64,000 nucleotides of DNA, taken from the NCBI RefSeq assembly GCF_000688395.1, contig NZ_JIAG01000007.1:1-64000 (forward strand). Reading direction: 5' to 3'. Position numbers and translations under genes: made by a program. Each line of letters starts with the position of its first letter. The stretch's first letter is position 1. The notes beneath the pieces are model-generated. The model searched no databases, was not told the origin of the DNA, and was given only the letters and a program-made list of their open reading frames with translations. This DNA is from Haematomicrobium sanguinis DSM 21259 (GTDB taxonomy: Bacteria > Actinomycetota > Actinomycetes > Actinomycetales > Micrococcaceae). This document shows positions 43,551 to 59,989 of this stretch, one piece after another.

Positions 43551-45182
43551 ATGAGCACAATTGCTTACGAAGCCCAGGGCGCACCACGCGCCGCCGCCGA
43601 GGCGCACGTCCCACAGTTGGTCAGCGACAAATTCGCCAGCCGCCTGTTCGACAAGGATGCCACCTTGTGGGGTACGGATGCCGAACCGGAGGCGTCCATC
43701 CGCCTCGGCTGGGTAGATCTGGCCGAAACCTCCCGTCCGCTTGTCCCCGAAATCTTGAAGCTGCGCGATGAGTTCGCCGCCGAAGGCGTGAACCGTTTTG
43801 TGCTGGCGGGAATGGGCGGTTCCTCGCTCGCCCCCGAGGTCATCACCAAAACCGCCGGCGTCGAGTTGCATGTATTGGACTCCACCGACCCGGATCAGGT
43901 CCGCGAGGTACTGGACACCAAGTTGGAGGCCACCGCGATCGTGGTGTCCTCCAAGTCCGGGTCCACCGTGGAAACAGATTCGCAGCGCCGGGCTTTTGAG
44001 CAGGCGTTTACCGACGCCGGCATCGACGCTAAGTCCCGCATAGTGGTGGTCACCGATCCCGGTTCCCCGCTGGATAAGTCCGCCCGCGAGGCCGGTTACC
44101 GCGCCGTCTTCAATGCGGACCCCAACGTGGGCGGCCGCTACTCCGCGCTGACAGCGTTCGGCCTGGTTCCCTCCGGGCTGGCAGGGGTTGACATCGCCAC
44201 CTTGCTCGACGAGGCCGAGGAAGCTCAAGAGAGCCTGCGCGAGGATGACGCGAACAATCCCGGCCTGGCGCTCGGTTCCGCTCTTGGCGGCACCAATCCG
44301 CTGCGCAACAAAATTGTCTTCGTCGATGAAAACTCCGGGCTCGTGGATTTCGCGGATTGGGCCGAGCAGCTCATCGCCGAATCCACCGGCAAGCAGGGCA
44401 CCGGTGTGCTCCCGGTGGTCGCCTCCGCGGGTGCACCCGAGACTCGCCGCCAAGCCGATGACGTGCTCATTGTCCGCTTAGAAAACCCGGACTCGGAACT
44501 CACCGCGGGCGAGAATGAAGTCGCGGTCGCCGGCAGTCTCGGCGCCCAAATGCTGTTGTGGGAGGTTGCCACGGCCGTTGCCGGCGCCCTGCTGGGCATC
44601 AACCCCTTCGACCAGCCGGACGTCGAGGCGGCGAAGGTGGCCGCACGCGGTTTGCTGGAGAACAAGCCGGAAGCCACGCAGGCCAACTTTGTTGACGGCG
44701 CGGTTGAAGTGAGGGCCGACGGCGAGTGGCTGGGTAAGGCGAATACTCTCACCGAGGCCTTGGGTGCTTTGCTGAAGCAAGTGCCTTCCGACGGGTACGT
44801 GAGCGTTCAGGCGTATTTGAATCGCCTGACCGACGAGGCGCTGGTTGCCTTGCGCGATCAATTCGCCGAGTTGACCGGGCGTCCGGTCACCTTTGGCTGG
44901 GGCCCGCGTTTCCTGCACTCCACCGGCCAGTTCCACAAGGGCGGCCCGGCCATCGGCGTGTACCTTCAGATCACCGGCGTCCCCGAAAAAGACCTGGATA
45001 TTCCGGGTCTGCCCTTCACCTTTGGCGAGCTCATTCAGGCGCAGGCGCAAGGCGATGCGAATGTCCTGTCAGAGCACGGTCGTCCCGTGCTGCGGCTGAA
45101 CTTCACCAATCGCGGTCAGGGCATTGCCCAGTTGCTGGAGGCGGTGGCGTCCTTGGAGGCCGCCGGCGACGGGCGCGCATGA
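43551..45182 (+). CDS. pgi: Glucose-6-phosphate isomerase
   Basis: Interconverts glucose 6-phosphate and fructose 6-phosphate, linking glycolysis with the oxidative branch encoded next. The 543-aa protein has SIS-type segments (FVLAGMGGSSLAPEVI, VVVSSKSGSTVETDSQR, VVVTDPGSPLDKSA) and a C-terminal active-site region (FGWGPRFLHSTGQFHKGGPAIG). It is the divergent pgi form seen fused or adjacent to tal in actinobacteria, shorter in similarity to E. coli Pgi. It starts 6 bp after tal and overlaps zwf (ATGA). Confidence 0.92.
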   Translation: MSTIAYEAQGAPRAAAEAHVPQLVSDKFASRLFDKDATLWGTDAEPEASIRLGWVDLAETSRPLVPEILKLRDEFAAEGVNRFVLAGMGGSSLAPEVITKTAGVELHVLDSTDPDQVREVLDTKLEATAIVVSSKSGSTVETDSQRRAFEQAFTDAGIDAKSRIVVVTDPGSPLDKSAREAGYRAVFNADPNVGGRYSALTAFGLVPSGLAGVDIATLLDEAEEAQESLREDDANNPGLALGSALGGTNPLRNKIVFVDENSGLVDFADWAEQLIAESTGKQGTGVLPVVASAGAPETRRQADDVLIVRLENPDSELTAGENEVAVAGSLGAQMLLWEVATAVAGALLGINPFDQPDVEAAKVAARGLLENKPEATQANFVDGAVEVRADGEWLGKANTLTEALGALLKQVPSDGYVSVQAYLNRLTDEALVALRDQFAELTGRPVTFGWGPRFLHSTGQFHKGGPAIGVYLQITGVPEKDLDIPGLPFTFGELIQAQAQGDANVLSEHGRPVLRLNFTNRGQGIAQLLEAVASLEAAGDGRA

Positions 45183-46714
45183 GCCCGAGTAGTACCGCAA
45201 ACCCGCTGCGGGATGGCCGCGACCGTCGGCTGACCCGCATTGCGGGGCCGAGCGCCCTGGTGTTGTTTGGCGTTACCGGAGATCTAGCCCAAAAGAAGTT
45301 GCTCCCGGCCATTTATGATTTGGCAAATCGCGGACTCTTGCCACCCAGCTTCTCGCTGGTCGGTTTCGGGCGCCGCGACTGGACGCATGAGCAGTTCGCC
45401 GATGTGGTTGAAGAGTCGGTTCGCGACCACTCACGGACAAGCTTCAACCCGGACGTCTGGAATCAGCTCAAGGCGGGCATCCGCTTTGTGCAGGGCGGTT
45501 TTGACGACGGTGCTGCCTTTGACACGCTCCGCGACACGTTGGCCGAACTCGAAAAAACCCGAGGGACGCGCGGCAACCATGCGTTCTATCTCTCCATCCC
45601 GCCAAAGTCCTTTGAAGCCGTCTGCCAGCAACTCTCCGAGCATGGCCTGGCTCAGGGCGAGGACGGGAAGTGGCGCCGGGTGGTCATTGAGAAACCCTTT
45701 GGCCATGATTTGGAGTCGGCCCGGGAGCTCAACGCGATCGTCGAGTCGGTGTTCCCTCCAGACGCCGTGTTCCGCATTGACCACTACTTGGGCAAGGAAA
45801 CCGTGCAAAACATTTTGGCTCTGCGCTTTGCCAACCAAATGTTTGAGCCCTTGTGGAACGCCCGCTATGTTGACCACGTGCAAATCACCATGGCCGAGGA
45901 CATCGGCATTGGTTCGCGCGCCGGATATTACGACGGCGTGGGCGCTGCCCGCGACGTCATCCAAAACCACCTGCTGCAGCTCCTCGCCCTGACCGCGATG
46001 GAAGAGCCGATTTCTTTTGACGCGAAGGATTTGCGCGCGGAGAAGGAAAAGGTGCTCGCCGCTGTCACGCTGCCGGAGGACCTAGGGGCGCATTCCGCGC
46101 GCGGCCAATACGCGGCCGGGTGGCAAGGCGGCGAATACGTGAACGGCTTCTTGGACGAAGAGGGCATCCCCGAGGATTCCGCTACCGAAACCTTCGCCGC
46201 AATCCGGGTGGACATCAATACCCGCCGCTGGAGCGGCGTACCGTTTTATTTGCGGGCCGGAAAGCGCTTAGGCAGGCGCGTCACGGAAATTGCCGTGGTG
46301 TTTAAGCGCGCGCCCAACTTGCTCTTTACGGAAGGTGAGAGCGAAGAATTCGGTCAGAACGCCGTCGTAATTCGCGTCCAACCCGACGAGGGCGCCACGC
46401 TCCGCTTTGGTTCCAAGGTGCCCGGCACTCAGATGGAAGTGCGCGACGTATCAATGGACTTCGGCTACGGACACTCCTTCACCGAATCCAGCCCGGAGGC
46501 CTATGAACGGCTGATCCTGGACGTGCTGCTGGGCGAACCGCCGCTCTTCCCACGCCAAGCCGAGGTGGAACTGTCCTGGAAAATCCTGGACCCCTTTGAA
46601 AAATATTGGGCCGATTCCGGAACTCAACCCGAGTCCTATGCGCCAGGAAGCTGGGGGCCAGAACAAGCCGCCGAACTCCTGGAACGCGACCAGCGCACCT
46701 GGAGACGACCATGA
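45179..46714 (+). CDS. zwf: Glucose-6-phosphate 1-dehydrogenase
   Basis: First oxidative step of the pentose phosphate pathway, giving NADPH. The 511-aa product shows the coenzyme motif FGVTGDLAQKKLLPAIYDL near the start and the active-site RIDHYLGKETVQNILALRFAN. EKPFGHDLESARELN and the C-terminal RLILDVLLGEPPLFPRQAEVE are also typical. Its ATG overlaps the pgi stop and its own stop overlaps opcA (both ATGA), so the genes are coupled. OpcA in actinobacteria acts as its assembly partner. Confidence 0.96.
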   Translation: MSPSSTANPLRDGRDRRLTRIAGPSALVLFGVTGDLAQKKLLPAIYDLANRGLLPPSFSLVGFGRRDWTHEQFADVVEESVRDHSRTSFNPDVWNQLKAGIRFVQGGFDDGAAFDTLRDTLAELEKTRGTRGNHAFYLSIPPKSFEAVCQQLSEHGLAQGEDGKWRRVVIEKPFGHDLESARELNAIVESVFPPDAVFRIDHYLGKETVQNILALRFANQMFEPLWNARYVDHVQITMAEDIGIGSRAGYYDGVGAARDVIQNHLLQLLALTAMEEPISFDAKDLRAEKEKVLAAVTLPEDLGAHSARGQYAAGWQGGEYVNGFLDEEGIPEDSATETFAAIRVDINTRRWSGVPFYLRAGKRLGRRVTEIAVVFKRAPNLLFTEGESEEFGQNAVVIRVQPDEGATLRFGSKVPGTQMEVRDVSMDFGYGHSFTESSPEAYERLILDVLLGEPPLFPRQAEVELSWKILDPFEKYWADSGTQPESYAPGSWGPEQAAELLERDQRTWRRP

Positions 46715-47658
46715 TTGTTGACCTGCCGAACACCACCACCTCGAAGATCTCCAAGAAGCTCATGCAGTTGCGCGAGCAGGGCGGCGTGATAGCGCTCGGC
46801 CGAGTGCTCACGCTCGTGGTGATGACCTCGGAAGGCACCGAGGAAGAGGCCATCGAGGCGGCGAATAAGGCAAGCCGGGAGCACCCGTGCCGCATTATCG
46901 TGCTATCCAAGGCGGACCCGGGCGGCGAGGACCGTCTGGATGCGGAAATCCGGGTTGGCGGCGACGCCGGTGCCTCCGAGGTGATTGTGCTGCATGGGTC
47001 CGGGAAGCTTGCTGTGGACAATGAGTCCCTGGTGTCCGCGCTGCTTTTGCCGGACGCGCCCATTGTCGCGTGGTGGCCGCACTTGGCGCCGGAGGACCCG
47101 GCGGACTCGCCGATCGGCCGCATTGCGCACCGACGCATCACCGATTCGGCCAATGAGCCGGATCCGCAATCCGCACTGGAGCGCATGAGCAAGAATTATG
47201 CGGACGGCGACACCGACCTCGCGTGGACGCGATTGACAAATTGGCGCATCCAGTTGGCCGCCGTTTTTGATCAACTCGGAGCCGGGGAGGTCACCGCCAT
47301 CGAGGTGGAGGGCGCTTCCGATTCGCCGAGCACCGTGCTCTTGGCGGCGTGGCTGAGCCAACGTCTGGGCGCTCCAACCACCATGGTCAAGGACGCCGCC
47401 GGGACCGGGCTCCGACGTGTGAGCGTGCACCGCGCGGAGGGCGATGTGGAGTTGAACCGGCCGCAGGTTTCGGTGGCGAGCCTCACCCAGCCCGGACAGC
47501 CGCCGCAGCATATCGCGCTGCCGAGGCGGACCCTGGATGACTGTTTGGCCGAAGAATTACGTAGGCTAGATGCTGACGAGGTGTTCGGAGACGTCATCAC
47601 CACGGCGTTGCCCGAGCTCTTGTCGCGAGAAGGCGCCACCGCGCGCACCACCGATTAG
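46711..47658 (+). CDS. opcA: OpcA, glucose-6-phosphate dehydrogenase assembly protein
   Basis: A 315-aa protein, IVDLPNTTTSKISKKLMQLREQGG at the start and APIVAWWPHLAPEDPADSPIGRIAHRRITDS in the middle, matching OpcA. It is needed for full Zwf activity in corynebacteria and cyanobacteria. I chose the ATG at 46711 within the ATGA overlap with zwf; a longer frame to 46606 would lie within zwf. It sits 23 bp before pgl. Confidence 0.94.
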   Translation: MIVDLPNTTTSKISKKLMQLREQGGVIALGRVLTLVVMTSEGTEEEAIEAANKASREHPCRIIVLSKADPGGEDRLDAEIRVGGDAGASEVIVLHGSGKLAVDNESLVSALLLPDAPIVAWWPHLAPEDPADSPIGRIAHRRITDSANEPDPQSALERMSKNYADGDTDLAWTRLTNWRIQLAAVFDQLGAGEVTAIEVEGASDSPSTVLLAAWLSQRLGAPTTMVKDAAGTGLRRVSVHRAEGDVELNRPQVSVASLTQPGQPPQHIALPRRTLDDCLAEELRRLDADEVFGDVITTALPELLSREGATARTTD

Positions 47659-47681
47659 CGCCTCCTACAAGAAAGGCAGCA

Positions 47682-48536
47682 ATGAGTTCCAAGACCTACA
47701 TCAACCTGCACCCCGGTTTCGACGTGCTGGCGGCAACCACCGCGGCACGGCTGATCACCCGCCTGGTGGACGTGCAAAATGTCCGCGGCGAGGCGACCGT
47801 TGTTCTCACCGGTGGAACCTTGGGTCAGGCAGTCTTGGAAGCGGTCGCGGCATCGAAGGCGCGGGACGCGGTGAATTGGCGTCGAGTGAACTTCTGGTGG
47901 GGCGATGAGCGCTTTGTGCCCAAGGACTCCCCCGAACGCAATGCTCGGCAGGCGTGGGACGCGTTGCTCTCCCACATCGATGTGGATCCCTCTCGTGTTC
48001 ACGAGTTTGGCGCGAGTGACGAGTTCGACTCGCTGGAAGCGGCGGCACAGGCGTATGCCGACGAGCTGGCCCGTGCGGCGGCGAGCGAGCGGCGCTACAC
48101 CGAAGAAACGAATGTGGAACGCATGCCGGAAGTCGCCGCCGTGTCCAGCGCCGCGCAACCCAATATCGACGAACGCCTTCCCATTTTTGACGTCCTGCTG
48201 CTTGGCATGGGCCCTGACGCGCACGTAGCCTCCCTTTTTCCCGAGCTCGCCGGGATCCGCGAAAAGGACAAGACCGTCATCTATGAGTATGACGCGCCAA
48301 AGCCCCCGCCAGAGCGCCTGAGCCTGACACTCCCCGCAATCAACACCGCCCACCAGATTTGGATTTGTGTGGCCGGGACCGACAAGGCCGGTGCGGTGGG
48401 GCTCGCCCTCGCCGGGGCCGGGCCCGTCCAAGTGCCAGCCGCGGGCGTCAAGGCCGTGGACCGCACCTTCTGGCTGATCGATCAGGACGCGGCGGCTAAG
48501 GTGCCGCGGAACTTGATCTACACCCAGGACAATTAG
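47682..48536 (+). CDS. pgl: 6-phosphogluconolactonase
   Basis: Hydrolyses 6-phosphogluconolactone, the product of Zwf. The 284-aa DevB-type protein has VVLTGGTLGQAVLEAV, VNFWWGDERFVPKDSPERN (the family's active-site-like motif) and FDVLLLGMGPDAHVASLFP. It ends LTLPAINTAHQIW...VPAAGVKAVDRTFWLID. An insert around residues 125-155 (about ARAAASERRYTEETN) is longer than in most homologues. It closes the plus-strand pentose phosphate cluster and is convergent with rbpA, 9 bp away. Confidence 0.93.
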   Translation: MSSKTYINLHPGFDVLAATTAARLITRLVDVQNVRGEATVVLTGGTLGQAVLEAVAASKARDAVNWRRVNFWWGDERFVPKDSPERNARQAWDALLSHIDVDPSRVHEFGASDEFDSLEAAAQAYADELARAAASERRYTEETNVERMPEVAAVSSAAQPNIDERLPIFDVLLLGMGPDAHVASLFPELAGIREKDKTVIYEYDAPKPPPERLSLTLPAINTAHQIWICVAGTDKAGAVGLALAGAGPVQVPAAGVKAVDRTFWLIDQDAAAKVPRNLIYTQDN

Positions 48537-48545
48537 CGGCGCCCG

Positions 48546-48905
48546 TTAGTTCTCCCGGCGCGAGCGTTTCAGTGCGTCGGCGAGGATTTGCTCGGCATCC
48601 TCCGCGTTGCGGCGCTCTTTGGCGTACTCGAGCGGCGTTTTGTACGGCTCTTCGGCGTCGACGGTGACCAGCGCGCCCTCCCGCCCGGCCATCTGGTGGC
48701 ACGTGGAGCAATCCCAGCTTGGCGGAACCTCGGTGTCCTCCAGCGGGGCGAAACGCACGGTCGTGGAGTGCCCGCCGGGACAGACGTACGTGATCACGGT
48801 CCCGATGAGCGCGTCAGTATCGCGCCCATTATCGACTTGCCAGCTTTCGGCGGTCAGCGGGTCCGCGCCGACGCGGCTCCCCCGCACTGCCCCATTTGCG
48901 TTCAC
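48546..48905 (-). CDS. rbpA: RNA polymerase-binding protein RbpA
   Basis: A 119-aa transcription factor that binds the RNA polymerase and principal sigma factors in actinobacteria. It has RGSRVGADPL at the N-terminus, the zinc-like core YVCPGGHSTTVRF...PPSWDCSTCHQMAG, and the sigma-interacting C-terminal helix PLEYAKERRNAEDAEQILADAL. It starts at a GTG (48905) with AAGGAG 7 nt upstream. In related genomes it neighbours secG; here a sugar transporter operon lies between them. Confidence 0.92.
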   Translation of the reverse strand: MNANGAVRGSRVGADPLTAESWQVDNGRDTDALIGTVITYVCPGGHSTTVRFAPLEDTEVPPSWDCSTCHQMAGREGALVTVDAEEPYKTPLEYAKERRNAEDAEQILADALKRSRREN

Positions 48906-48988
48906 TTGGCACTCCTTGGGCTAGACGGTCTCCTTATCACCATCCTAATTCTGCGCCGCTCGCGCCGAAAGGGATCGCTGGGTGTTAA

Positions 48989-49900
48989 CTACCCTTTGAG
49001 CCCTCCGGCACCGACAAACCCGGCCCCGAGCCGCCTGCCCATGAGCAAGTACAAGACCACCACAGGCAGCGAATACAGGATCGAGAACGCGGCCAGTTGC
49101 CCGTAGGCGACCTGCCCGTACTGCGAGGAAAAGGTATATAGGCTCACCGCGGCCGGTAACTTGTCCGGGGACAGCAACAGCATGAAGGGGACAAAGAAGT
49201 TTCCCCACATCCCCACAAAAGTGAAAATCGTGACGACCGCGGTCCCCGGCCGCATGAGCGGTAGCACAATCGACCACAGTGTCTGCATGGTGGAGGCGCC
49301 TTCTGTCCAGGCGCTTTCCTCGATTTCTTTCGGCACCGAGTCCATAAATGTTTTCATCAGGAAGATCGCGTACGGCAGGCTCGATGCGGCCAAAAACAGG
49401 ATTGCCCCGACCATGGAATCGATCAGGTTGACCTGCACAAACATGGCGTACACCGGGATCATGATGGCGGTTATCGGCAACCCGGTCGCAAACACGATGG
49501 TGAGCAGGAAACCGCGCTTGGCCCTCGACTGGTAGCGCGAGAGCGGGTAGGCCGCCAGCGCGGCACACACGATGGTCACGAGTGTTGCCCCGCCGCAGAG
49601 GACAATCGAGTTCCAGATGGGCCGGAACGTCGTTTCGGTGTTCCAGATGGCCGCATAATTATCGAGGCTGGGCTTTTCCGGCCACTTCACCGCAAGGGTG
49701 GCGTTGACGTCCAGCGAGGCAAAAATGACCCACAAGAGCGGGATGCTGAAGGCCGCGGCAATGACCAGAAGTACGACGGCGCTTGCCACGTTCGCGGTTT
49801 TCGTCCGGCTCCGATTGGGGTGCTTGGGGGACGAGGCTCGCGCTGCGCGCGAGGAGGTGGAAACGGTGTGGCTGGGTGCGCTTTCGGCGGCGGCACTCAT
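48989..49900 (-). CDS. Carbohydrate ABC importer permease (MalG-type)
   Basis: A 303-aa membrane protein with about six hydrophobic segments after a Ser/Arg-rich N-terminal tail. The EAA loop is KEIEESAWTEGASTMQTLWSIVLPLMRPGT, which binds the ATPase. It pairs with the MalF-type permease upstream (4-bp overlap) and the binding protein before that. The ATPase subunit is not encoded here, as is common in actinobacteria that share one MsiK-like ATPase. Substrate unknown. Confidence 0.9.
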   Translation of the reverse strand: MSAAAESAPSHTVSTSSRAARASSPKHPNRSRTKTANVASAVVLLVIAAAFSIPLLWVIFASLDVNATLAVKWPEKPSLDNYAAIWNTETTFRPIWNSIVLCGGATLVTIVCAALAAYPLSRYQSRAKRGFLLTIVFATGLPITAIMIPVYAMFVQVNLIDSMVGAILFLAASSLPYAIFLMKTFMDSVPKEIEESAWTEGASTMQTLWSIVLPLMRPGTAVVTIFTFVGMWGNFFVPFMLLLSPDKLPAAVSLYTFSSQYGQVAYGQLAAFSILYSLPVVVLYLLMGRRLGAGFVGAGGLKG

Positions 49901-50883
49901 GACTTGTCCTCCTTGGGCAACAGGCGCATGTAGATGAGCGAGGCGATCGCCCCGATGGCGAGCAGCAGTAGCGCGACGGCGGTGCCGTAACCGAGTTGGC
50001 CGAAGCTAAACGCTTGCTCGTACATGAACAGCGGCAGGGTTTGGCTTGCGGTTCCCGGGCCGCCGGCGGTCATGATGTAGATCAGTCCGAACACCGAGAG
50101 GGTCTGCAAGGTGATGAGCATGAGGTTGGTCAAGATGGATCGCCGGATGAGCGGCACCGTGATGGAGAAGAACCGCCGGAACGCTCCGGCGCCGTCGATT
50201 TGCGCCGACTCCCACACATCCGGTGACACTTGGGTTAGCGCCGCACGGTAGACGAGCATGCTAAAGGCGGTGCCGCGCCAAATATTGGCGAAAGCCACCG
50301 CCAGGATCGGGAAACTGAAGAGAAGGTCTTGTGAGGGCAAACCCAGCGCATTGGCAATCACGTTGAGGGTGCCTTCCTGGCCCAAGAACGTGGACCAGAG
50401 GTAGGCGGCCACAACTTCGGGCAGAATCCAGGCGGCAATGATGATGGCGCTAGTCAGTGCCGTAACAAACTTGTTGGCGCTACGCATCAACAGCGCCAAG
50501 ATCATCCCGAGGATGTTCTGTCCGATCACCGCGGAAAGGAACGTGAACACGAGGGTGAGCCAGACGGCGTTCCACAACCCGGGTGAGGAAAAGGCTTCCG
50601 CGAAATTGGCAAAGCCGACGAATTCGGTGTTGCTAGAACCCTCGCCGCGTAGGGCCCGGTTGGTGAAGGCCAGGTAGACCGAATAGATAATCGGTCCGGC
50701 GAGGAATGCCAGAAGTATCAGGAGTGCGGGTACCAGCGGGAGGAAGCGAAGAACCGTTGTCTTCCTGTGTGGTCGCGGCTGCCGCATTGCTGGGGCGCCG
50801 CTCCCGCCTGGACGCTCAGCGGTTGTGACCTCGCGAATCCGGATCGATTCGGACGCCGCCTCGCGGGATTCTGAGCCGCTCAT
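49897..50883 (-). CDS. Carbohydrate ABC importer permease (MalF-type)
   Basis: A 328-aa membrane protein. After a long cytoplasmic N-terminal tail (about 60 aa) come six or so membrane segments; the EAA loop is DVWESAQIDGAGAFRRFFSITVPLIRRSI. The first external region ANFAEAFSSPGLWNAVW is typical of the UgpA/MalF class. I chose the ATG at 50883, 1 bp after the binding-protein stop; a longer frame would cross that gene. It overlaps the MalG-type gene by 4 bp. Confidence 0.9.
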   Translation of the reverse strand: MSGSESREAASESIRIREVTTAERPGGSGAPAMRQPRPHRKTTVLRFLPLVPALLILLAFLAGPIIYSVYLAFTNRALRGEGSSNTEFVGFANFAEAFSSPGLWNAVWLTLVFTFLSAVIGQNILGMILALLMRSANKFVTALTSAIIIAAWILPEVVAAYLWSTFLGQEGTLNVIANALGLPSQDLLFSFPILAVAFANIWRGTAFSMLVYRAALTQVSPDVWESAQIDGAGAFRRFFSITVPLIRRSILTNLMLITLQTLSVFGLIYIMTAGGPGTASQTLPLFMYEQAFSFGQLGYGTAVALLLLAIGAIASLIYMRLLPKEDKS

Positions 50884-50884
50884 C

Positions 50885-52267
50885 TTAGCCCTCCTTGACC
50901 GTGTTGTTCGCGCCGACGATGTCGGTGACCGTGGCGTCGTAGGCCGCGGCGGCCGCATCGACGGATCCGCCGATCATGACCTGCTCCATGGCCGATTGAA
51001 TGGCCGCGGAAATCTGCGGATACGGGGCGAGAGCCGGACGGTACGTGGCGAAGTCCATGAGGGAGGTGAAAAACCCGACCGTCGGCGAATAACTTTGGTA
51101 CTCCTGACTTTCGGCCACGTCCCGTCGGATGGTGATGTTGTTGTCCGTGGTCGCGAAGAACGTGGAGTTCTCGGTGTTGCACAGCAGTTGGAGGAACTCC
51201 CAGGCGAGGTCCGGGTTTCGCGAGAGGCGCGGCATGGCCCAGGACCACCCGCCGGCGAGAGTGACGGCACCGGGGTCTTGGCCCTGCTGGGTCGGCATCT
51301 TTGTCAGGCCCATCACCTCGGACCACTCGGGCCAGGCCCCCGCGGCGCCTTCCGCCCAGTTGCTGCTGATCCAGCTGCCGTCAAGGTTAATAGCGAGCGT
51401 GGATTGCGGGAGCCAGTTGGTATAGATGGTTTCGGTCAGGTTGGGGTCCATCGCGTTTTGCAGGGGCGGAGCGAGCTTTTCGTCAAACACGGTCTTAATA
51501 AAGCTGAGCGAATCGCGGAAGCCTTGGGAACCGACCACCCACTGCTGGCTGGTGTCGGTGAACAGGGTGGAACGTGTGCCATACAGCAGCATTTCAAAGC
51601 CCTGCATGCTGGCTTTTTCCCCTTGCGCTTTGCCGGAGAAGATGTTGAACGGGATGACGTCCGGAAGGGCGCTTTTGATGGTCCGCGCGGTTTGCAGGAT
51701 GTCATCCCAGGACGACGGGTTCCATTCGCGCGCCAGCCCGGCTTGCTCAAAGAGGTCTTGGTTGTGCCAGAGTGCACGGGTGTCGGTGCTGGTAGGGATG
51801 GCGTACGGAATGCCGTCGGCCGAGACCGCGTCCTTCGATGCCGGGTAAATGTCTTGCCACGGCTGCCACATGGCGAGGTAGTCCTGCAAGGGGCGCAAAT
51901 ACCCGGCGGCGACGTCCGACTTCAAAATGAACGTATCCTCATACACCAGGTCGGGCGCTGTGCGCTCCGAGGACATCATGAGTTCGTTTTTGGTGAAGTA
52001 GTCGTTTTCGGCGGCGACAAGCGGGATGACTTGGACCGTGATGTCAGGATTCGTTTGCCGAAATTGGTCGATCACGCGGGCGAGGTAGGTCTGCATGACG
52101 GTGCCGCTACCCCACTGCTGGTGGCTGACCTTCAGGAGCTTGGACTCGTCTTGCGGCGCGCACCCGCTGAGGGCCGGGATCGTGAATGCGGCACCGGCTG
52201 CCAGTGCGCCCAATATGGTCCGACGGCTTACGGGTCGCCGCATGTCCCCCGGTATGCCCATGCCCAT
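50885..52267 (-). CDS. Sugar ABC transporter binding lipoprotein
   Basis: A 460-aa extracytoplasmic solute-binding protein of the carbohydrate (family 1) type. The N-terminus has SRRTILGALAAGAAF, a twin-arginine-like signal, then the lipobox ALSGC, so it may be a Tat-exported lipoprotein. Later segments such as QFRQTNPDITVQVIPLVAAENDYFTKNEL and NLAWEFLQLL-like SBP features (ARNPDLAWEFLQLL) fit the family. It heads the three-gene importer operon. No LacI regulator or glycosidase is adjacent. The ligand cannot be predicted. Confidence 0.88.
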   Translation of the reverse strand: MGMGIPGDMRRPVSRRTILGALAAGAAFTIPALSGCAPQDESKLLKVSHQQWGSGTVMQTYLARVIDQFRQTNPDITVQVIPLVAAENDYFTKNELMMSSERTAPDLVYEDTFILKSDVAAGYLRPLQDYLAMWQPWQDIYPASKDAVSADGIPYAIPTSTDTRALWHNQDLFEQAGLAREWNPSSWDDILQTARTIKSALPDVIPFNIFSGKAQGEKASMQGFEMLLYGTRSTLFTDTSQQWVVGSQGFRDSLSFIKTVFDEKLAPPLQNAMDPNLTETIYTNWLPQSTLAINLDGSWISSNWAEGAAGAWPEWSEVMGLTKMPTQQGQDPGAVTLAGGWSWAMPRLSRNPDLAWEFLQLLCNTENSTFFATTDNNITIRRDVAESQEYQSYSPTVGFFTSLMDFATYRPALAPYPQISAAIQSAMEQVMIGGSVDAAAAAYDATVTDIVGANNTVKEG

Positions 52268-52334
52268 CGAAACTGTCCCTTCGGCGCGTGTTGTCCCTGA
52301 ATCGTCCCCTGTGATCCATACAACACTCTCGATA

Positions 52335-52394
52335 TCGATTGTGCAGAAAATGCACGCTTTAACGGCGTGTCGCGCGCGTGTTCTGCACAGTCGA
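52335..52394 (+). repeat. Interspersed inverted-repeat element, copy 3
   Basis: Arms TCGATTGTGCAGA (52335-52347) and TCTGCACAGTCGA (52382-52394) are 13-bp complements with one mismatch. The interior CGCTTTAACGGCGTGTCGCG differs from copy 2 at few positions and has the same orientation. It lies between secG and the sugar-binding-protein gene, both on the minus strand. Confidence 0.82.
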
Positions 52395-52451
52395 ATTCAG
52401 CACCGGCGAATTCAGCGCCAGCAAAATCAGCACTGTCGAAATCAAGTGCGC
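52392..52451 (+). repeat. Four degenerate 15-bp tandem repeats beside element copy 3
   Basis: Units start at 52392, 52407, 52422 and 52437; the first two, CGAATTCAGCACCGG and CGAATTCAGCGCCAG, differ at three positions, the later two more. The array starts inside the right arm of the inverted-repeat element. On the minus strand a short open frame would read DFAGA/EFAGA-like pentapeptides, but it overlaps the binding-protein gene and is probably not expressed. Confidence 0.65.
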
Positions 52452-52494
52452 GCGGGAAAGGGCCTCGGTTCGGGTGACCGTCGCGGCGCGCGCC

Positions 52495-52562
52495 CTCGTC
52501 TATGTAGCGCGACACGCCGAGGAAACGCGTGTTTCCTCGGCGTGTCGCGCTACATAGATGAG
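52495..52562 (-). terminator. 68-bp near-perfect palindrome after secG
   Basis: A 26-bp perfect stem (52501-52526 with 52531-52556) and a GCGT loop is extended to 32 bp (52495-52562) by six more pairs, one a G:T wobble. It starts 1 bp beyond the secG stop on the minus strand. The arm contains CGGCGTGTCGCGC, which also occurs in element copy 3. No T-tract follows. A terminator role is likely; it could also be a derivative of the element family. Confidence 0.75.
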
Positions 52563-52563
52563 G

Positions 52564-52830
52564 TTAGGAGTCGCCGAATTGGGCGAAGCGCTGGATCAGG
52601 CCAAGCGCAATGATCACAAGCCCCCAGGTCAAGCCGATGAAGACCGTGATGCGGTTGAGGTTTGTTTCTGCAACGCCGCTGGCTCCCAGGTTGGAGGTAA
52701 AGCCGCCGCCGAACATGTCGGAGACGCCGCCGCCACGGCCCTTGTGCAAAAGAATGAGTCCGGTCAACAAGAAGCTGGTGATTCCAAGAATGACCAAGAG
52801 GACAATCTTGACGACATTGAGAATTTCCAC
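52564..52830 (-). CDS. secG: Protein translocase subunit SecG
   Basis: An 88-aa protein with two membrane segments (VVKIVLLVILGITSFLLTGLILLH and ITVFIGLTWGLVIIALGLIQ) and the SecG loop HKGRGGGVSDMFGGGFTSNLGASGVAETNLNR between them. It is part of the SecYEG channel. It sits after tpiA in the glycolytic operon, as in many actinobacteria, and ends in a large palindrome. Confidence 0.95.
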   Translation of the reverse strand: MEILNVVKIVLLVILGITSFLLTGLILLHKGRGGGVSDMFGGGFTSNLGASGVAETNLNRITVFIGLTWGLVIIALGLIQRFAQFGDS

Positions 52831-52863
52831 GCAGAAGCCTTTCGCGGTTCCGGGCCAGAGTGG

Positions 52864-53679
52864 CTAACCGGTCACCAGGTGTTGTTCGAACCTGACAATA
52901 TTAGCAAATTCGGTGGCGTCCAGGCTCGCGCCACCCACCAACACGCCGTCCACGTCGCGCGAACGCATGATCGCGGCAACATTGGCCGCCTTGACGGAAC
53001 CGCCGTAGAGCAGTCGAACGTCTTTCGCGACCGATTCGTCATAGAGTTTCGCAAGTTCGTCGCGAATGGCCGCGCACATTTCTTGGGCGTCCTCGGGGCC
53101 GGCGACTTCACCGGTGCCAATGGCCCACACCGGCTCGTACGCGATCACAAGCGAGCGGGCCTGTTCGGCGGTAATCGGTTCCAGGTCGGCACGCACTTGG
53201 TCCAGTGTGTATTGGACATGCTCGCCCGCCTTGCGAACCTCGAGACCTTCGCCAACGCACAAGACCGGGGTGATGTTGTGGCGGTAGGCCGCCTGTAGCT
53301 TGCGGGCCAAAAGATCGTCGGTTTCCCCGTTAATGGTGCGGCGCTCCGAGTGGCCGACCAACACAAAGGAGCAGCCGAGCTTCTCAAGGAACTCCCCCGA
53401 AATCTCACCGGTGTATGCGCCCGAGTCAAATTCGGAGAGGTCTTGAGCGCCGTACTTGAGATCGAGGTCATCGCCATGCACCAAGGTCTGTACCGAACGC
53501 AGATCGGTGAATGGCGGGAAGACGGCTACTTCGACGCGGGAGTAGTCGTGCTTGGCATCGTCCAAGGTCCAGGCCAGTTTTTGTACCAGGGTGATGGCCT
53601 GCTGATGGTCCAGGTTCATCTTCCAGTTGCCGGCGATCAGCGGGGTGCGCTCGAATTTGCCGTCGGTCACAATCGTCAT
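52864..53679 (-). CDS. tpiA: Triosephosphate isomerase
   Basis: A 271-aa TIM barrel: [16 protein letters not shown] (catalytic Lys in the N-terminal loop), [18 protein letters not shown] (catalytic His), [22 protein letters not shown] (catalytic Glu and loop 6) and [14 protein letters not shown] (phosphate loop). It interconverts dihydroxyacetone phosphate and glyceraldehyde 3-phosphate. Third in the gap-pgk-tpiA-secG operon, 48 bp after pgk. Confidence 0.97.
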
Positions 53680-53727
53680 GGGTGCCTCACAGGTGTTGAA
53701 GTGGTGATGGGAAAGAGTGTCGCGTCG

Positions 53728-54978
53728 CTAGGAATTCAGGATCGTGACGCCAGGCAGTTCTTTGCCCTCAAGGAATTCCAGGCTTGCTCCGCCCCCGGTG
53801 GAGATGTGGGAGAAACCGGACTCCTCAAACCCGAGTGTACGCACCGCGGCAGCGGAGTCGCCACCTCCGACGACGGTGAATGCGCCGTCCTTGGTGGCAT
53901 CCACGAGTGCTTGCGCGACGGCTCGGGTCCCGGCCGAGAACTGCTCGAATTCGAACACACCCATCGGGCCGTTCCAAAAGACGGTCTTGGCGTCTGTGAT
54001 CACATTGGCAAACTGTTGAGCGGTTTCCGGTCCAATGTCGAGGCCGATGGCCGCCTCGCCAAAGGTCCCGGACGCGATTTCATCGGCCCCCAGTGTTTCG
54101 GCGTCCGCGTCGGCGGCGAATTTGTCGGCAACCACAATGTCGGTGGGTAGGACGATCTTTGCGCCCTCGCCGGATTCGCTGCGGCGCAGGTAATCCTTGA
54201 CGGTAGCGATCTGGTCTTCTTCCAGGAGGCTTGCGCCAACCCGCAACCCTTGAGCGGCCAGGAAGGTGAACAGCATCCCGCCGCCGATCAGCAGGTAATC
54301 GGCGCGATCCAGGAGCGAGTCGATCACGGCGAGTTTGTCGGAAACCTTGGAGCCGCCAAGCACGACCACGTAGGGGCGTTCCGGGTCCTGGGTGAGCTTG
54401 TTGAGAACCTGGATTTCGGTGTCGACCAAACCGCCAGCGTAGGCCGGGAGGACGGTTGCGATGTCGTAAACGCTCGCGTGTTTGCGGTGTACAGCGCCGA
54501 AGGCGTCATCGACGTATACGCCCTGGTTCCCCGTGAGCGAGGCGAGTTCCTTCGCCAAAGCCAGCCGATCGCCGTCGTTCTTTGAGGTTTCACGCGGATC
54601 GAAGCGCACGTTTTCCAGCAGCAGTACCGATCCGCCGGGGAGCGCTTCCGCCTTGGCGCGCGCGTCCTCGCCGGTCAGGTCGGTGGCGAATTCCACCGGG
54701 AAGTCGGCCAGTTCGCCAAGCCGTTTTGCGACCGGCGCGAGCGAATACTGGGGGTCGGGTTCGCCCTTGGGTCGGCCCAAGTGCGCCATGACAATGACCT
54801 TCGCCCCCGCGCCGACCAACTTTTCCAAGGTCGGCAGCGAGGCGCGAATACGGCCATCATCGGTAATGGTTGCGTCAGCGCCCTCCCCGTCCAGCGGTAC
54901 GTTCAGATCCGAGCGGACCAACACGTAGCGGTCCTTCATCTCCTCGTGAAGCAGGCTGTCCAGGGTTTTCGCGCTCAC
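53728..54978 (-). CDS. pgk: Phosphoglycerate kinase
   Basis: A 416-aa two-domain kinase: [14 protein letters not shown] at the N-terminus, [56 protein letters not shown] and the C-terminal [33 protein letters not shown]. It makes ATP from 1,3-bisphosphoglycerate. The start is a GTG at 54978, 18 bp after gap on the minus strand. Confidence 0.97.
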
Positions 54979-54996
54979 GCAACGGCTCCTTAGGTT

Positions 54997-56007
<1,011 letters not shown>

Positions 56008-56030
56008 TTACTCTCCTTCAATAGATGCAC

Positions 56031-56045
56031 CCCGCTGTGTGCGGG
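56031..56045 (-). promoter_or_regulatory. Small hairpin in the gap leader
   Basis: CCCGC (56031-56035) and GCGGG (56041-56045) form a 5-bp stem around a 5-nt loop, 27 bp upstream of the gap GTG and before its SD. Function is unknown; it could affect mRNA stability. Confidence 0.35.
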
Positions 56046-56067
56046 ATACCAGGTTCCTTAAAACACA

Positions 56068-56105
56068 AAGGCACACTGCCTGTGCATTGCACGGCAATGT
56101 GCCTT
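56068..56105 (-). terminator. Hairpin between sodA and gap
   Basis: AAGGCACA (56068-56075) pairs with TGTGCCTT (56098-56105), with inner GCC/GGC (56078-56080 / 56093-56095). A second small hairpin, CCTTCG / CGAAGG, follows at 56125-56141. Both lie downstream of the minus-strand sodA stop (56247) and upstream of gap, so they may end the sodA transcript. No clear T-tract. The remaining bases of this 240-bp gap show nothing else. Confidence 0.45.
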
Positions 56106-56246
56106 CGATGAAGTCCATGTTTCACCTTCGTTTCGCGAAGGGACGTGACTTACATTACATCACCCGTTCGCTACTTCTCACAATCACGGCATTGGCGTCG
56201 CCGCGAAAGCGAGAGGCAGGCTCGGGTAAGGGATGCGGGAGAGTTC

Positions 56247-56885
56247 TTAGCCCTCTACCGCGATCAGCTTGTGCGAACCGTTGCGGGCCGCTTCAAAACG
56301 CTTGGCGACATCCTCCCAGTTCACAATGTTCCAGAACGCCTTCACATAGTCGGCCTTGACGTTGACGTAGTCCAGGTAGAACGCGTGCTCCCACATGTCG
56401 AGCATGAGAAGCGGGGTCACGCCTGCGGCAACGTTGCCCTGTTGGTCATAAAGCTGCTCGATCAAGAGGTTCTCGCCGATGGGATCGAAGGACAGGAATG
56501 CCCAACCGGATCCCTGCAGACCGAGCGCCGCTGCGGTGAACTGTGCACGGAAGTTGTCGAAGGAGCCGAACGCGTCATCGATCGCGGCTGCGAGCTCGCC
56601 GGTGGGCTTGTCGCCGCCGTCCGGGGACAGGTTATTCCAGAAGATCGAGTGGTTGGTGTGACCGCCGGTGTGGAACGCGAGGTCCTTGGAGAGCTGGTTG
56701 ATATTTCCGTATTCGCCCTTCTCGCGAGCTTCCGCGAGCTGGGTCATGGCCTTGTTCGCACCGGCCACGTATGCCGCATGGTGCTTGTCGTGGTGAAGCT
56801 CCATGATGCGCGCGGAGATGTAAGGCTCCAAAGCCGCATAGTCATAGGGCAGATCGGGAAGGGTGTACTCGGTGAAATTGCTCAC
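56247..56885 (-). CDS. sodA: Superoxide dismutase, Fe/Mn family
   Basis: A 212-aa enzyme that disproportionates superoxide. [33 protein letters not shown] supplies the first metal histidines, [13 protein letters not shown] a further region, and [23 protein letters not shown] the Asp and His ligands. I chose the GTG at 56885 with GGAGG 5 nt upstream; the longer frame adds 28 residues unlike the family. Mn versus Fe use cannot be settled from the sequence. Confidence 0.94.
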
Positions 56886-56998
56886 GTATTCCTCCAATTT
56901 CGATGTGTGCGGCCAGTCTTGTCGTGGCCGCGCGGGCGAAACCTCGCCGGTTTCTCCTACTGGGTTCAACTCAGGGAATGAGTGACCTATTTCCCATC

Positions 56999-57979
56999 CT
57001 ATTCATCCAGCATCTCTTCCGTCACACTCTCTTCGGTGCCCGGTATGCCGAGCTCGGCGGCCCGCTTATCCGCCATGGCCAAAAGTCGGCGAATCCGACC
57101 GGCGATCGCGTCCTTCGTCATGGGCGGATCGGCGAGACGGCCAAGCTCATCCAGGCTCGCCTGCTTGTGCGCGGTGCGCAGTTCGCCCGCATATTTGAGG
57201 TGATCGGGGACATCGTCGTCGAGGATTTCCAGCGCCCGTTCCACGCGTGCACCGGCGGCAACGGCCGCTTGCGCGGAGCGGCGCAGATTCGCGTCGTCGA
57301 AGTTCGCGAGCCGATTGGCTGTGGCACGAACCTCCTTGCGCATTCGCCGCTCTTCCCACACCAGCAAGGTGTCATGCGCTCCCATCCGGGTCAGCAGTGC
57401 GGCGATCGTATCGCCATCGCGGATCACGACCCGGTCAATGCCGCGCACTTCGCGGGCTTTGGCGGCAATGCCGAGGCGTCGCGCGGCGCCCACCAAGGCG
57501 AGTGCCGATTCCGGGCCAGGGCAGGTAATCTCCAGCGCCGAGGAGCGTCCCGGTTCGGTGAGCGAACCGTGCGCCAAGAACGCACCGCGCCACACCGCCT
57601 CGGCTTCGGCCACCGAACCGTTGACGATCGCCGAAGGCAAACCGCGCACCGGGCGGCCGCGGGCATCCAGCAAACCGGTTTGGCGTGCCAGGGATTCGCC
57701 ATCTTTGACCACACGGACCACATACCGGCTGGTACGCCTCAATCCCCCGGCGGAGACCACGATGATTTCGCTCTGGTGCCCAAAAACTTCGGCGATGGTC
57801 GCCCGGAGCCGTCTCGCGGTGGAGGCCAAATCTACTTCGGCTTCAATGACGATGCGCCCGGAGATAATGTGCAGTCCTCCGGCAAAACGGAGGGTTGCCG
57901 AGGTTTCGGCACGCTTAATAACCGACTTCTTGACTTCGAGCCTGGAGAGTTCCTCTTTCAGTTCTGCTGTCAGCGCCAT
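56999..57979 (-). CDS. whiA: Sporulation/cell-division regulator WhiA
   Basis: A 326-aa protein with an N-terminal homing-endonuclease-like fold ([41 protein letters not shown]) and a C-terminal HTH ([29 protein letters not shown]). WhiA binds DNA and controls division genes, often with WhiB. It is the last of the rapZ-yvcK-whiA unit, 10 bp after yvcK, an order conserved across Gram-positives. Confidence 0.96.
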
Positions 57980-57988
57980 GTACTCCCC

Positions 57989-59005
57989 TTAGCCCTCAAA
58001 TATCTCGTTCATTGCGGCGGCGAGCTTGATCGGATCATGGATCGGCTCACCGCTCGACACGCCAAGCTTACTCACGCTCACCTGTGCACCCAACTCGCGT
58101 GCGGCCTCCTCAAACCCGTCCCCGGGGTGTAGCACCGTAGGATCCGCGACCACGACATCAAAGCGCAACTCGGGCGCATAGCGTTTGATGACACGCAGGA
58201 AATCGCTGGGACTCATGCCCACCGTCTCCTCGGTTTCTGTGCTCAAATTCATGACCAACGCTCGCTTGGCGGTGGAATTTTGCAGTCCGCGGCGCATCTC
58301 TGGAAGCAGCAAGTGCGGTAGGACCGAGGTGTACCAGGACCCGGGCCCCAGCACGACCCAATCGGCGAATTCAATGGCGTTGAGAGCTTCTTCACAGGCG
58401 GGCGCGTCCTCGGGAAAGAGCCGCACATTGGACACCACATTGTGTGCCCCGGCACGGGCAAGGTGAGACTGCCCGACAATTTTCGCGGTACTCAGCTGCC
58501 CGTTGACCTCTTGCAAGACATCGCCCTCAATGGTGAGCGGAAGCTTGGACATCGGTAACACAGTCCCCCGCGCACCCAACAGCGCGCCCGCCCACTGTAG
58601 ACCGGCCACCGGATCGCCTAGGAGTTCCCAGAGCGTGACAATGAGCAGATTGCCCAGGGTGTGCCCGTCGAGGCTGCCGTCAATGCCGTCCTGGGACACA
58701 AAGCGGTGTTGCATCACGTCTCGCCAGGTGCGTCCCCAGTCGTTCGTGTCGCAGAGCGCGGCGAGCGCCATCCGCAAATCGCCGGGCGGGAGCACGCCCA
58801 TCTCGGTGCGCAAGCGCCCGGAGGAGCCGCCGTCATCGGCGACGGTCACCACCGCGGTGAGTTCCCCGGTCACGTGCCGCAGCGCCGAAAGCGATGCGTA
58901 GAGCCCGTGCCCGCCCCCCAGTGCGACGACGTTGGGCCGGCTTTGATCGGTCGGTTCCGGTTTACCGGCGGCTGGCGGAAGTATCGGTAGAGAGCCGGTC
59001 CACAT
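57989..59005 (-). CDS. yvcK: YvcK/gluconeogenesis factor family protein
   Basis: A 338-aa protein of the YvcK/CofD-like family: NVVALGGGHGLYASLSALRHVT, VVTVADDGGSSGRLRTEMGVLPPGDLRM, DGHTLGNLLIV and VLGPGSWYTSVLPHLLLPEM. Such proteins bind UDP-sugars and support growth on gluconeogenic carbon and cell-wall synthesis. I chose the ATG at 59005, 1 bp after the rapZ stop; a longer frame would overlap rapZ by 35 bp. Confidence 0.94.
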   Translation of the reverse strand: MWTGSLPILPPAAGKPEPTDQSRPNVVALGGGHGLYASLSALRHVTGELTAVVTVADDGGSSGRLRTEMGVLPPGDLRMALAALCDTNDWGRTWRDVMQHRFVSQDGIDGSLDGHTLGNLLIVTLWELLGDPVAGLQWAGALLGARGTVLPMSKLPLTIEGDVLQEVNGQLSTAKIVGQSHLARAGAHNVVSNVRLFPEDAPACEEALNAIEFADWVVLGPGSWYTSVLPHLLLPEMRRGLQNSTAKRALVMNLSTETEETVGMSPSDFLRVIKRYAPELRFDVVVADPTVLHPGDGFEEAARELGAQVSVSKLGVSSGEPIHDPIKLAAAMNEIFEG

Positions 59006-59006
59006 A

Positions 59007-59906
59007 TTATTCTCGGCCCAAGTCTCGGTGGTGCACGGCAACCTTCACCCCGGGCAATTGCGCGAGCCGCTTGCCCAGTTCGATTGCCACGGCCACCGAG
59101 CGGTGCTTTCCGCCGGTACAACCGATCGCAATATTGGCGTAGTGCTTGTTTTCCTTGCGGTAGCCCTCAAAGACCGGTTCCAGGGCGCTCACGTACTTCT
59201 CGACAAACTCTTCGGCGCCGTTTTCGTGCAGCACAAACTCGGAGACGGCCTCGTCTTGCCCGGTGAGCGGGCGCAACTGGGGAACCCAGTGCGGGTTGGG
59301 CAAAAACCGCACATCGGCCACATAGTTGGCATCCACCGGCAGCCCGTATTTGAAGCCGAAACTCATCACGTTGATGCGCAGCACAATGGGCCCGTCCTCT
59401 TTAAAGAGGTCGGTGATGGTGGTGGCCAGCTGGTGGACGTTTTTGTCTGTGGTGTCGATTCGCAGGTCGGCGAAGTCGCGCACCTCGTTCATCACTTCGC
59501 GCTCTAAGGCGAGGCCGTCCAAAATGCGCCCATCGCCCTGCAAGGGGTGCGGGCGGCGGCCTTGTTCAAAGCGGCGAACCAACACGTCATCGGTGGCGTC
59601 CAGGAACAGCACCCGGTAGTCCACCCCCGCCGAGCGCAAACCGGCCAGCGCCTCACGCACTTCGCGGAAGAGTTCCCGGGTGCGCACATCGACAACCACG
59701 GCGAGTTTTGGCATGGTTTCCGGCGAGCGTGCCACCAGTTCGCTCAACGGGCCGAGCATTTGCGGCGGAAGGTTTTCCACGACGTACCAGCCGTGGTCTT
59801 CCAAGGCGTTGGCCGCGGTCGATCGACCCGCACCCGACATTCCGGTCACCACCAGAATCTCCGATTGGGCAGGTTTTTCGCTACGAAGACCGGCATCTTC
59901 GCTCAT
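59007..59906 (-). CDS. rapZ: RNase adapter/nucleotide-binding protein RapZ
   Basis: A 299-aa protein with Walker [23 protein letters not shown] (about residues 20-27) and the C-terminal [30 protein letters not shown]...[19 protein letters not shown]. In enterobacteria RapZ controls glucosamine-6-phosphate synthase through RNase E. In actinobacteria the role is unclear, though it is always with yvcK-whiA. SD AGGAG precedes the ATG. Confidence 0.95.
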
Positions 59907-59971
59907 GCATTAACTCCTTGACATCGTGAGGCGGGCTGTTGGGGCCGTCGTCTCCCGGCCTGTCTTCTCTA

Positions 59972-59988
59972 GCCTAATATGCTTAGGC
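59972..59988 (-). terminator. Small hairpin after uvrC
   Basis: GCCTAA (59972-59977) pairs with TTAGGC (59983-59988) around a 5-nt loop, 1 bp beyond the minus-strand uvrC stop. The arm also contains a TAGGCT box that could serve as a minus-strand -10 for rapZ, so a promoter-related role is equally possible. Confidence 0.4.
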
Positions 59989-59989
59989 C

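What the first reader, a model, noticed from the sequence alone, without database searches (positions are those of the whole stretch)
52335..52562. Element copy 3, 15-bp repeats and a related 68-bp palindrome clustered after secG
Within 230 bp there are element copy 3, four degenerate 15-bp repeats starting inside its right arm, and a palindrome with a 26-bp perfect stem. The palindrome arm and the element interior share the 13-mer CGGCGTGTCGCGC, so the palindrome may be a two-armed derivative of the element's interior. The cluster marks one edge of the sugar-transporter segment that separates rbpA from secG.
Basis: seen in the sequence. Interest (0 to 1): 0.6.

Follow-up and report, generated by a model that had tools for sequence, protein, structure and literature searches.

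The report
Repeated palindromes that end bacterial genes
Just after a gene of this actinobacterium lie two related hairpin-forming repeats, each present in about 35 to 45 copies in the genome; they mostly sit right after gene ends, where they probably mark or terminate messages, and they resemble known repeated palindromes except that a short sequence core recurs in other genera and no known spreading enzyme was found.

Summary
Element (52335-52394), degenerate 15-bp repeats and a 70-bp palindrome (52494-52563) lie between secG and a sugar-transporter gene. Both are interspersed repeat families: 41 element copies, at least 34 palindrome copies. All but one of the 67 genomic copies of CGGCGTGTCGCGC belong to them, so sharing it is not chance.

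The palindrome sits 0-15 nt from a facing stop codon in 29 of 31 copies (random placement 14.9), is enriched between convergent genes, rare between divergent ones, folds at about -57 kcal/mol, and has no U-tract on any of 64 sides. After secG, four relatives carry an unrelated hairpin there, two with a U-run. Best reading: a REP-like, bidirectional 3'-end hairpin.

The relation to the element goes beyond the 13-mer: one element arm matches the outer arm and core of a sister palindrome (TCGACTGTGTAGCAGTTAATGCC), the other matches this palindrome's core. The sister core AGTTRATGCC recurs, mostly after stop codons, in 8 of 244 other genomes of the family (three other genera); the element was not found in 58 relatives. 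So the element more likely derives from palindromes than the reverse.

An IS110-family element has inserted into palindrome copies. No RAYT (REP-associated transposase) domain was found. Interest moderate.

The parts
52494..52563 (.). Palindrome P1: CCTCGTCTATGTAGCGCGACACGCCGAGGAAAC-GCGT-GTTTCCTCGGCGTGTCGCGCTACATAGATGAGG; stem 33, loop 4
   Evidence: at least 34 genome copies with a variable loop; folds at -57 to -60 kcal/mol
52335..52394 (-). Element: imperfect inverted repeat, 60 bp core; in most copies it is preceded by a C-rich tract and followed by TTTCGAGTGTGCA (gene-sense = minus strand here)
   Evidence: 41 copies aligned with flanks
52381..52440 (-). Degenerate 15-bp tandem units that repeat the element's terminal motif TTCGACTGTGCAGAA; similar 15-bp arrays adjoin at least one other copy (C9:58650)
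52363..52375 (+). 13-mer CGGCGTGTCGCGC shared by element and palindrome arms (12-mer CGGCGTGTCGCG in most element copies)
52564..52830 (-). secG, last gene of the gap-pgk-tpiA-secG run; its stop codon abuts the palindrome
50885..52267 (-). Solute-binding protein gene of the sugar transporter; starts 68 bp beyond the element

Best explanation
The palindrome is one copy of a repeated, REP-like family of long perfect palindromes that lie directly after stop codons. Transcribed from either side it forms a very stable hairpin that most likely ends or trims messages: here it would close the gap-pgk-tpiA-secG message and separate it from the transporter genes (inferred). Because it has no U-tract, termination probably needs a factor (Rho or NusG), or the hairpin is the point to which the 3' end is trimmed and protected (inferred). 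The element is a directional relative of the same superfamily, built from two unlike palindrome arms, and likewise found mainly downstream of genes. The families spread as repeats; an IS110-family element uses the palindrome as a landing site. Shown: copy number, position, folding, relatedness, insertion. Inferred: the effect on transcripts and the means of spread.
For: Position: 29 of 31 palindrome copies lie within 15 nt of a facing stop codon (random placement mean 14.9, maximum 22 in 1000 trials); 19 of 33 between convergent genes versus 12% background (p 6e-10); 2 of 33 between divergent genes versus 24%. After secG, four relatives have an unrelated hairpin at +14 to about +60, two of them followed by a U-run like a standard intrinsic terminator. 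Long palindromes at gene ends are usual in five relatives. Element direction: 15 of 18 same-strand contexts have the same orientation relative to the genes (p 0.008). The sister-core palindromes in other genera lie within about 22 nt of a facing stop in 11 of the 12 loci from the same family. IS110 ends inside palindrome copies at C14, C21 and C13.
Against: None of 64 palindrome sides is followed by TTTT, so it is not a canonical intrinsic terminator. The outer arm is almost invariant over 32 copies, which a hairpin alone would not require: recent copying, gene conversion or a sequence-specific binder could explain it. Element copies lie less tightly at stops (median 25 nt; 8 of 33 within 15 nt versus 5.4 by chance). 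No transcript data were available. Genes were called by a simple codon-usage script, not by a standard annotation pipeline.
Confidence: 0.68

Rival explanations
1. The palindrome is a DNA site: its nearly invariant arm core is bound by a protein (for example a nucleoid or chromosome-organising protein), and the 3' location only reflects where such sites are tolerated.
For: The 18-bp outer arm hardly varies in 32 copies while loop and inner stem vary freely; a 10-bp core AGTTRATGCC at fixed 38-39 nt overall spacing recurs in other genera with other outer arms and loops.
Against: Tight placement within 15 nt of stops and the excess at convergent ends fit an RNA role better; replacement by unrelated hairpins after secG in relatives.
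Confidence: 0.2
2. Purely selfish miniature mobile elements: they insert next to stop codons because that is harmless, without effect on transcripts.
For: Dispersed families of near-identical copies; the family distribution is patchy among relatives.
Against: No Y1/RAYT transposase domain in the genome; no longer element sharing the ends was found, since most element hits are full length; random insertion into the same intergenic gaps would not give distances of 0-15 nt.
Confidence: 0.25
3. The element and the palindrome are unrelated and share the 13-mer by chance or because of a common host factor site.
For: The ungapped alignment of element and P1 arm ends at the 12-mer (p 0.0045).
Against: A second, colinear match of the outer arm and the match of the other element arm to the sister palindrome.
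Confidence: 0.12
4. The palindrome is primarily the attachment target of an IS110-family element and has no other role.
For: The same insertion point in two palindromes and TGTAGCGCT of the target side in the IS noncoding end (8 of 5000 shuffles).
Against: Nearly all copies are uninterrupted, and the position at stops is not explained.
Confidence: 0.05

Closest known systems
REP / REPIN sequences (GTAG and CGTC super-families, PMC3733652)
   Same: Short palindromic, dispersed, mostly between convergent or same-strand genes and downstream of coding regions; thought to act as RNA elements; targets of IS elements. P1 even contains CGTC and GTAG.
   Different: Here GTAG is internal and paired, stems are about 30 bp and nearly perfect, and no RAYT domain was found; the conserved core lies inside the stem.
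Intrinsic (Rho-independent) transcription terminators, including bidirectional ones
   Same: GC-rich hairpin directly after stop codons, enriched between convergent genes.
   Different: No U-tract on any of 64 sides; repeated conserved sequence instead of individually different hairpins.
IS110 insertion into REP elements (IS621, ISPpu9/10; PMC1525189, PMC11208160)
   Same: DEDD_Tnp_IS110 + Transposase_20 protein; insertion in a repeated palindrome; a guide-like stretch in the noncoding end.
   Different: The guide RNA was not modelled or tested here; the two junctions carry CT and CG at the crossover.
Neisseria/Haemophilus uptake sequences paired as terminators
   Same: A repeated short motif placed as inverted pairs after genes (point noted in PMC2267715).
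   Different: The motif here is rare outside the hairpins.

Membership tests
REP / REPIN | Many dispersed intergenic palindromic copies | tested here: met
   At least 34 palindrome and 41 element copies
REP / REPIN | Association with a RAYT (Y1 transposase) | tested here: not met
   PF01797: 0 matches in the genome, 5 of 14 control genomes positive
REP / REPIN | Unpaired GTAG/CGTC tag at one end of the hairpin | tested here: not met
   GTAG is internal and paired with CTAC in all 32 copies examined
Intrinsic terminator | Stable hairpin just after the stop codon | tested here: met
   29 of 31 within 15 nt; -57 kcal/mol
Intrinsic terminator | U-tract after the stem | tested here: not met
   0 of 64 sides with TTTT within 12 nt
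Intrinsic terminator | Ends transcripts in vivo | not testable with these tools
   No transcript data
MITE of a resident IS | Ends shared with a full-length transposon in the genome | tested here: inconclusive
   Most element hits are full length (the rest start at base 6), none is a lone end; a diverged partner could be missed
Rfam RNA family | Match to a curated covariance model | tested here: not met
   No match in window 45000-60000; only chance miRNA hits below threshold on related palindromes

The most novel reading that the evidence does not exclude
A family-wide class of 3'-end palindromes carries a conserved 10-bp core (AGTTRATGCC and derivatives such as GCGACACGCC) at fixed spacing inside otherwise freely changing stems, read by an unknown protein or RNase that sets transcript ends without a U-tract; the element is a directional version made from two unlike arms.
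Probability: 0.2. Interest if true: 0.7.

Novelty: new variant of a known kind. Interest (0 to 1): 0.42.

Why it matters
How actinobacteria end transcripts when hairpins lack U-tracts is disputed. A repeated hairpin of nearly fixed sequence at dozens of gene ends in one genome, with relatives in other genera that keep a core but change everything else, gives a natural series for testing whether sequence or only structure matters. It also adds a palindrome family outside the known RAYT-linked REPs that serves as an IS110 landing site.

Tried and rejected
Rfam search: nothing convincing. RAYT origin: no Y1 domain in the genome. Natural-uptake-type motif: TCGACTGTGCA is rare in 264 kb of sampled sequence. 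Group II intron at the palindrome: the inserted DNA is IS110, no intron RNA found. Collection scan for the outer arms: one hit in an unrelated metagenome genome, about what chance allows. Integron attC sites: considered because imperfect hairpins follow stop codons, rejected because P1 is nearly perfect and copies are dispersed between convergent genes, not in cassette arrays. Element as a canonical terminator with U-run: only 3 of 41 have TTTT. Literature searches for such repeats in actinobacteria found no description; the library lacks most subscription papers.

Full report
Check of the observation. All of it lies on the downstream side of secG (minus strand, 52564-52830) and ahead of a solute-binding protein gene (50885-52267).

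Both are repeat families. In the 2.9-Mb genome the element has 41 mapped copies, and 34 palindrome copies were mapped with their gene context. The 13-mer occurs 67 times against 3 for its reversed control, and all but one of these sites lie in the two families. Neither full repeat has a match in 58 relatives from the same family and order; the genus itself has no second genome in the sample.

What the palindrome looks like. Over 32 copies the outer stem TATGTAGCGCGACACGCC is almost unchanged on both sides, while the four loop bases and the inner four pairs vary freely. Sister forms keep the outer arm CTRTGTAGC but have other cores: GCGAAATGCCCATGTT and AGTTAATGCCCATGTT. The last core, searched as AGTTRATGCC...GGCATYAACT, has 17 places in this genome and occurs in 8 of the 244 other genomes of the family that were searched, in three other genera, at a fixed overall length of 38-39 nt although the pattern allowed 28-58, with no hit of the reversed control. 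In a wider sample of the order only one more genome outside the family had it.

Where it sits. 29 of 31 palindromes with a facing stop codon lie within 15 nt of it; random placement in the same gaps gives 14.9 on average and never more than 22. Convergent gaps are over-represented (19 of 33 against 12%), divergent ones under-represented (2 of 33 against 24%). The sister palindromes in other genera lie close to stops as well. Five relatives also carry long hairpins at gene ends, of unrelated sequence. After secG itself, four relatives carry a hairpin in the place of the palindrome, two with a U-run. This supports a role at transcript ends. Against a plain intrinsic terminator stands the lack of any U-tract (0 of 64 sides).

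The element. In the direction of the upstream gene it reads C-rich tract - TCGACTGTGCAGAACACGCACGCGACACGCCGTTAAAGCGTGCATTATCTGCACAGTCGA - TTTCGAGTGTGCA. The 20 nt before it are 52% C and 5.5% G. Where both neighbours are on one strand, 15 of 18 copies have the same orientation relative to the genes. One arm aligns with the sister palindrome arm TCGACTGTGTAGCAGTTAATGC, the other with the outer arm and core of the palindrome of the finding, separated by 8 nt. I therefore read it as a palindrome with two unlike arms. That the core-bearing palindromes occur in other genera while the element was not found there makes the palindrome the likelier ancestor; this is an inference from distribution. The 15-bp units repeat the element's terminal motif; a similar 15-bp array adjoins the copy at C9:58650.

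Mobile element at the palindrome. Two contigs show the same IS110-family end inside a palindrome, after GGCGTGTCG, and a third shows the other end before GCGCTACATAG. The noncoding end of the IS carries ATGTAGCGCT, which equals the target's left side plus CT; 8 of 5000 shuffles contain its 9-mer. In IS621 the left target guide has this form (PMC11208160), and IS110 elements are the family most often found in REPs (PMC1525189). No guide RNA was modelled, so this is a lead. No Y1 transposase domain was found in the genome.

The transporter. Three relatives have rbpA soon after secG with no transporter between them, so the transporter may be a later arrival here, but nothing connects the repeats to that event.

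Limits. The p-value for convergent placement treats copies as independent.

Noticed in passing
L129:1-1268 (G000:C13), L104:1551-2150 (C14), L114:1551-1911 (C21): IS110-family element (DEDD_Tnp_IS110 + Transposase_20) inserted in palindrome copies, with a possible target guide ATGTAGCGCT in its noncoding end.
   Followed up: partly
L119-L128 and 3-kb loci, e.g. C1:215149, C6:56410, C16:34245, C4:189749; also G023 (L165-L168): A further family of long palindromes with outer arms ACGACGGCG...CGCCGTCGT and variable interiors at gene ends; a similar hairpin occurs in another genus.
   Followed up: no
G000:C1:136990, C7:6822, C11:18471: Palindromes built from AATTGCGTTTTCATCC-like arms in different arrangements, possibly a third family.
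   Followed up: no
element copies genome-wide; e.g. L053, L043: Extra TCGAGTGTGCGC or CGACTGTGCTCCCGC direct repeats flank several element copies.
   Followed up: partly
52267-48905 against relatives L194, L195, L199: Transporter genes lie between secG and rbpA here, while three relatives have rbpA close after secG.
   Followed up: partly
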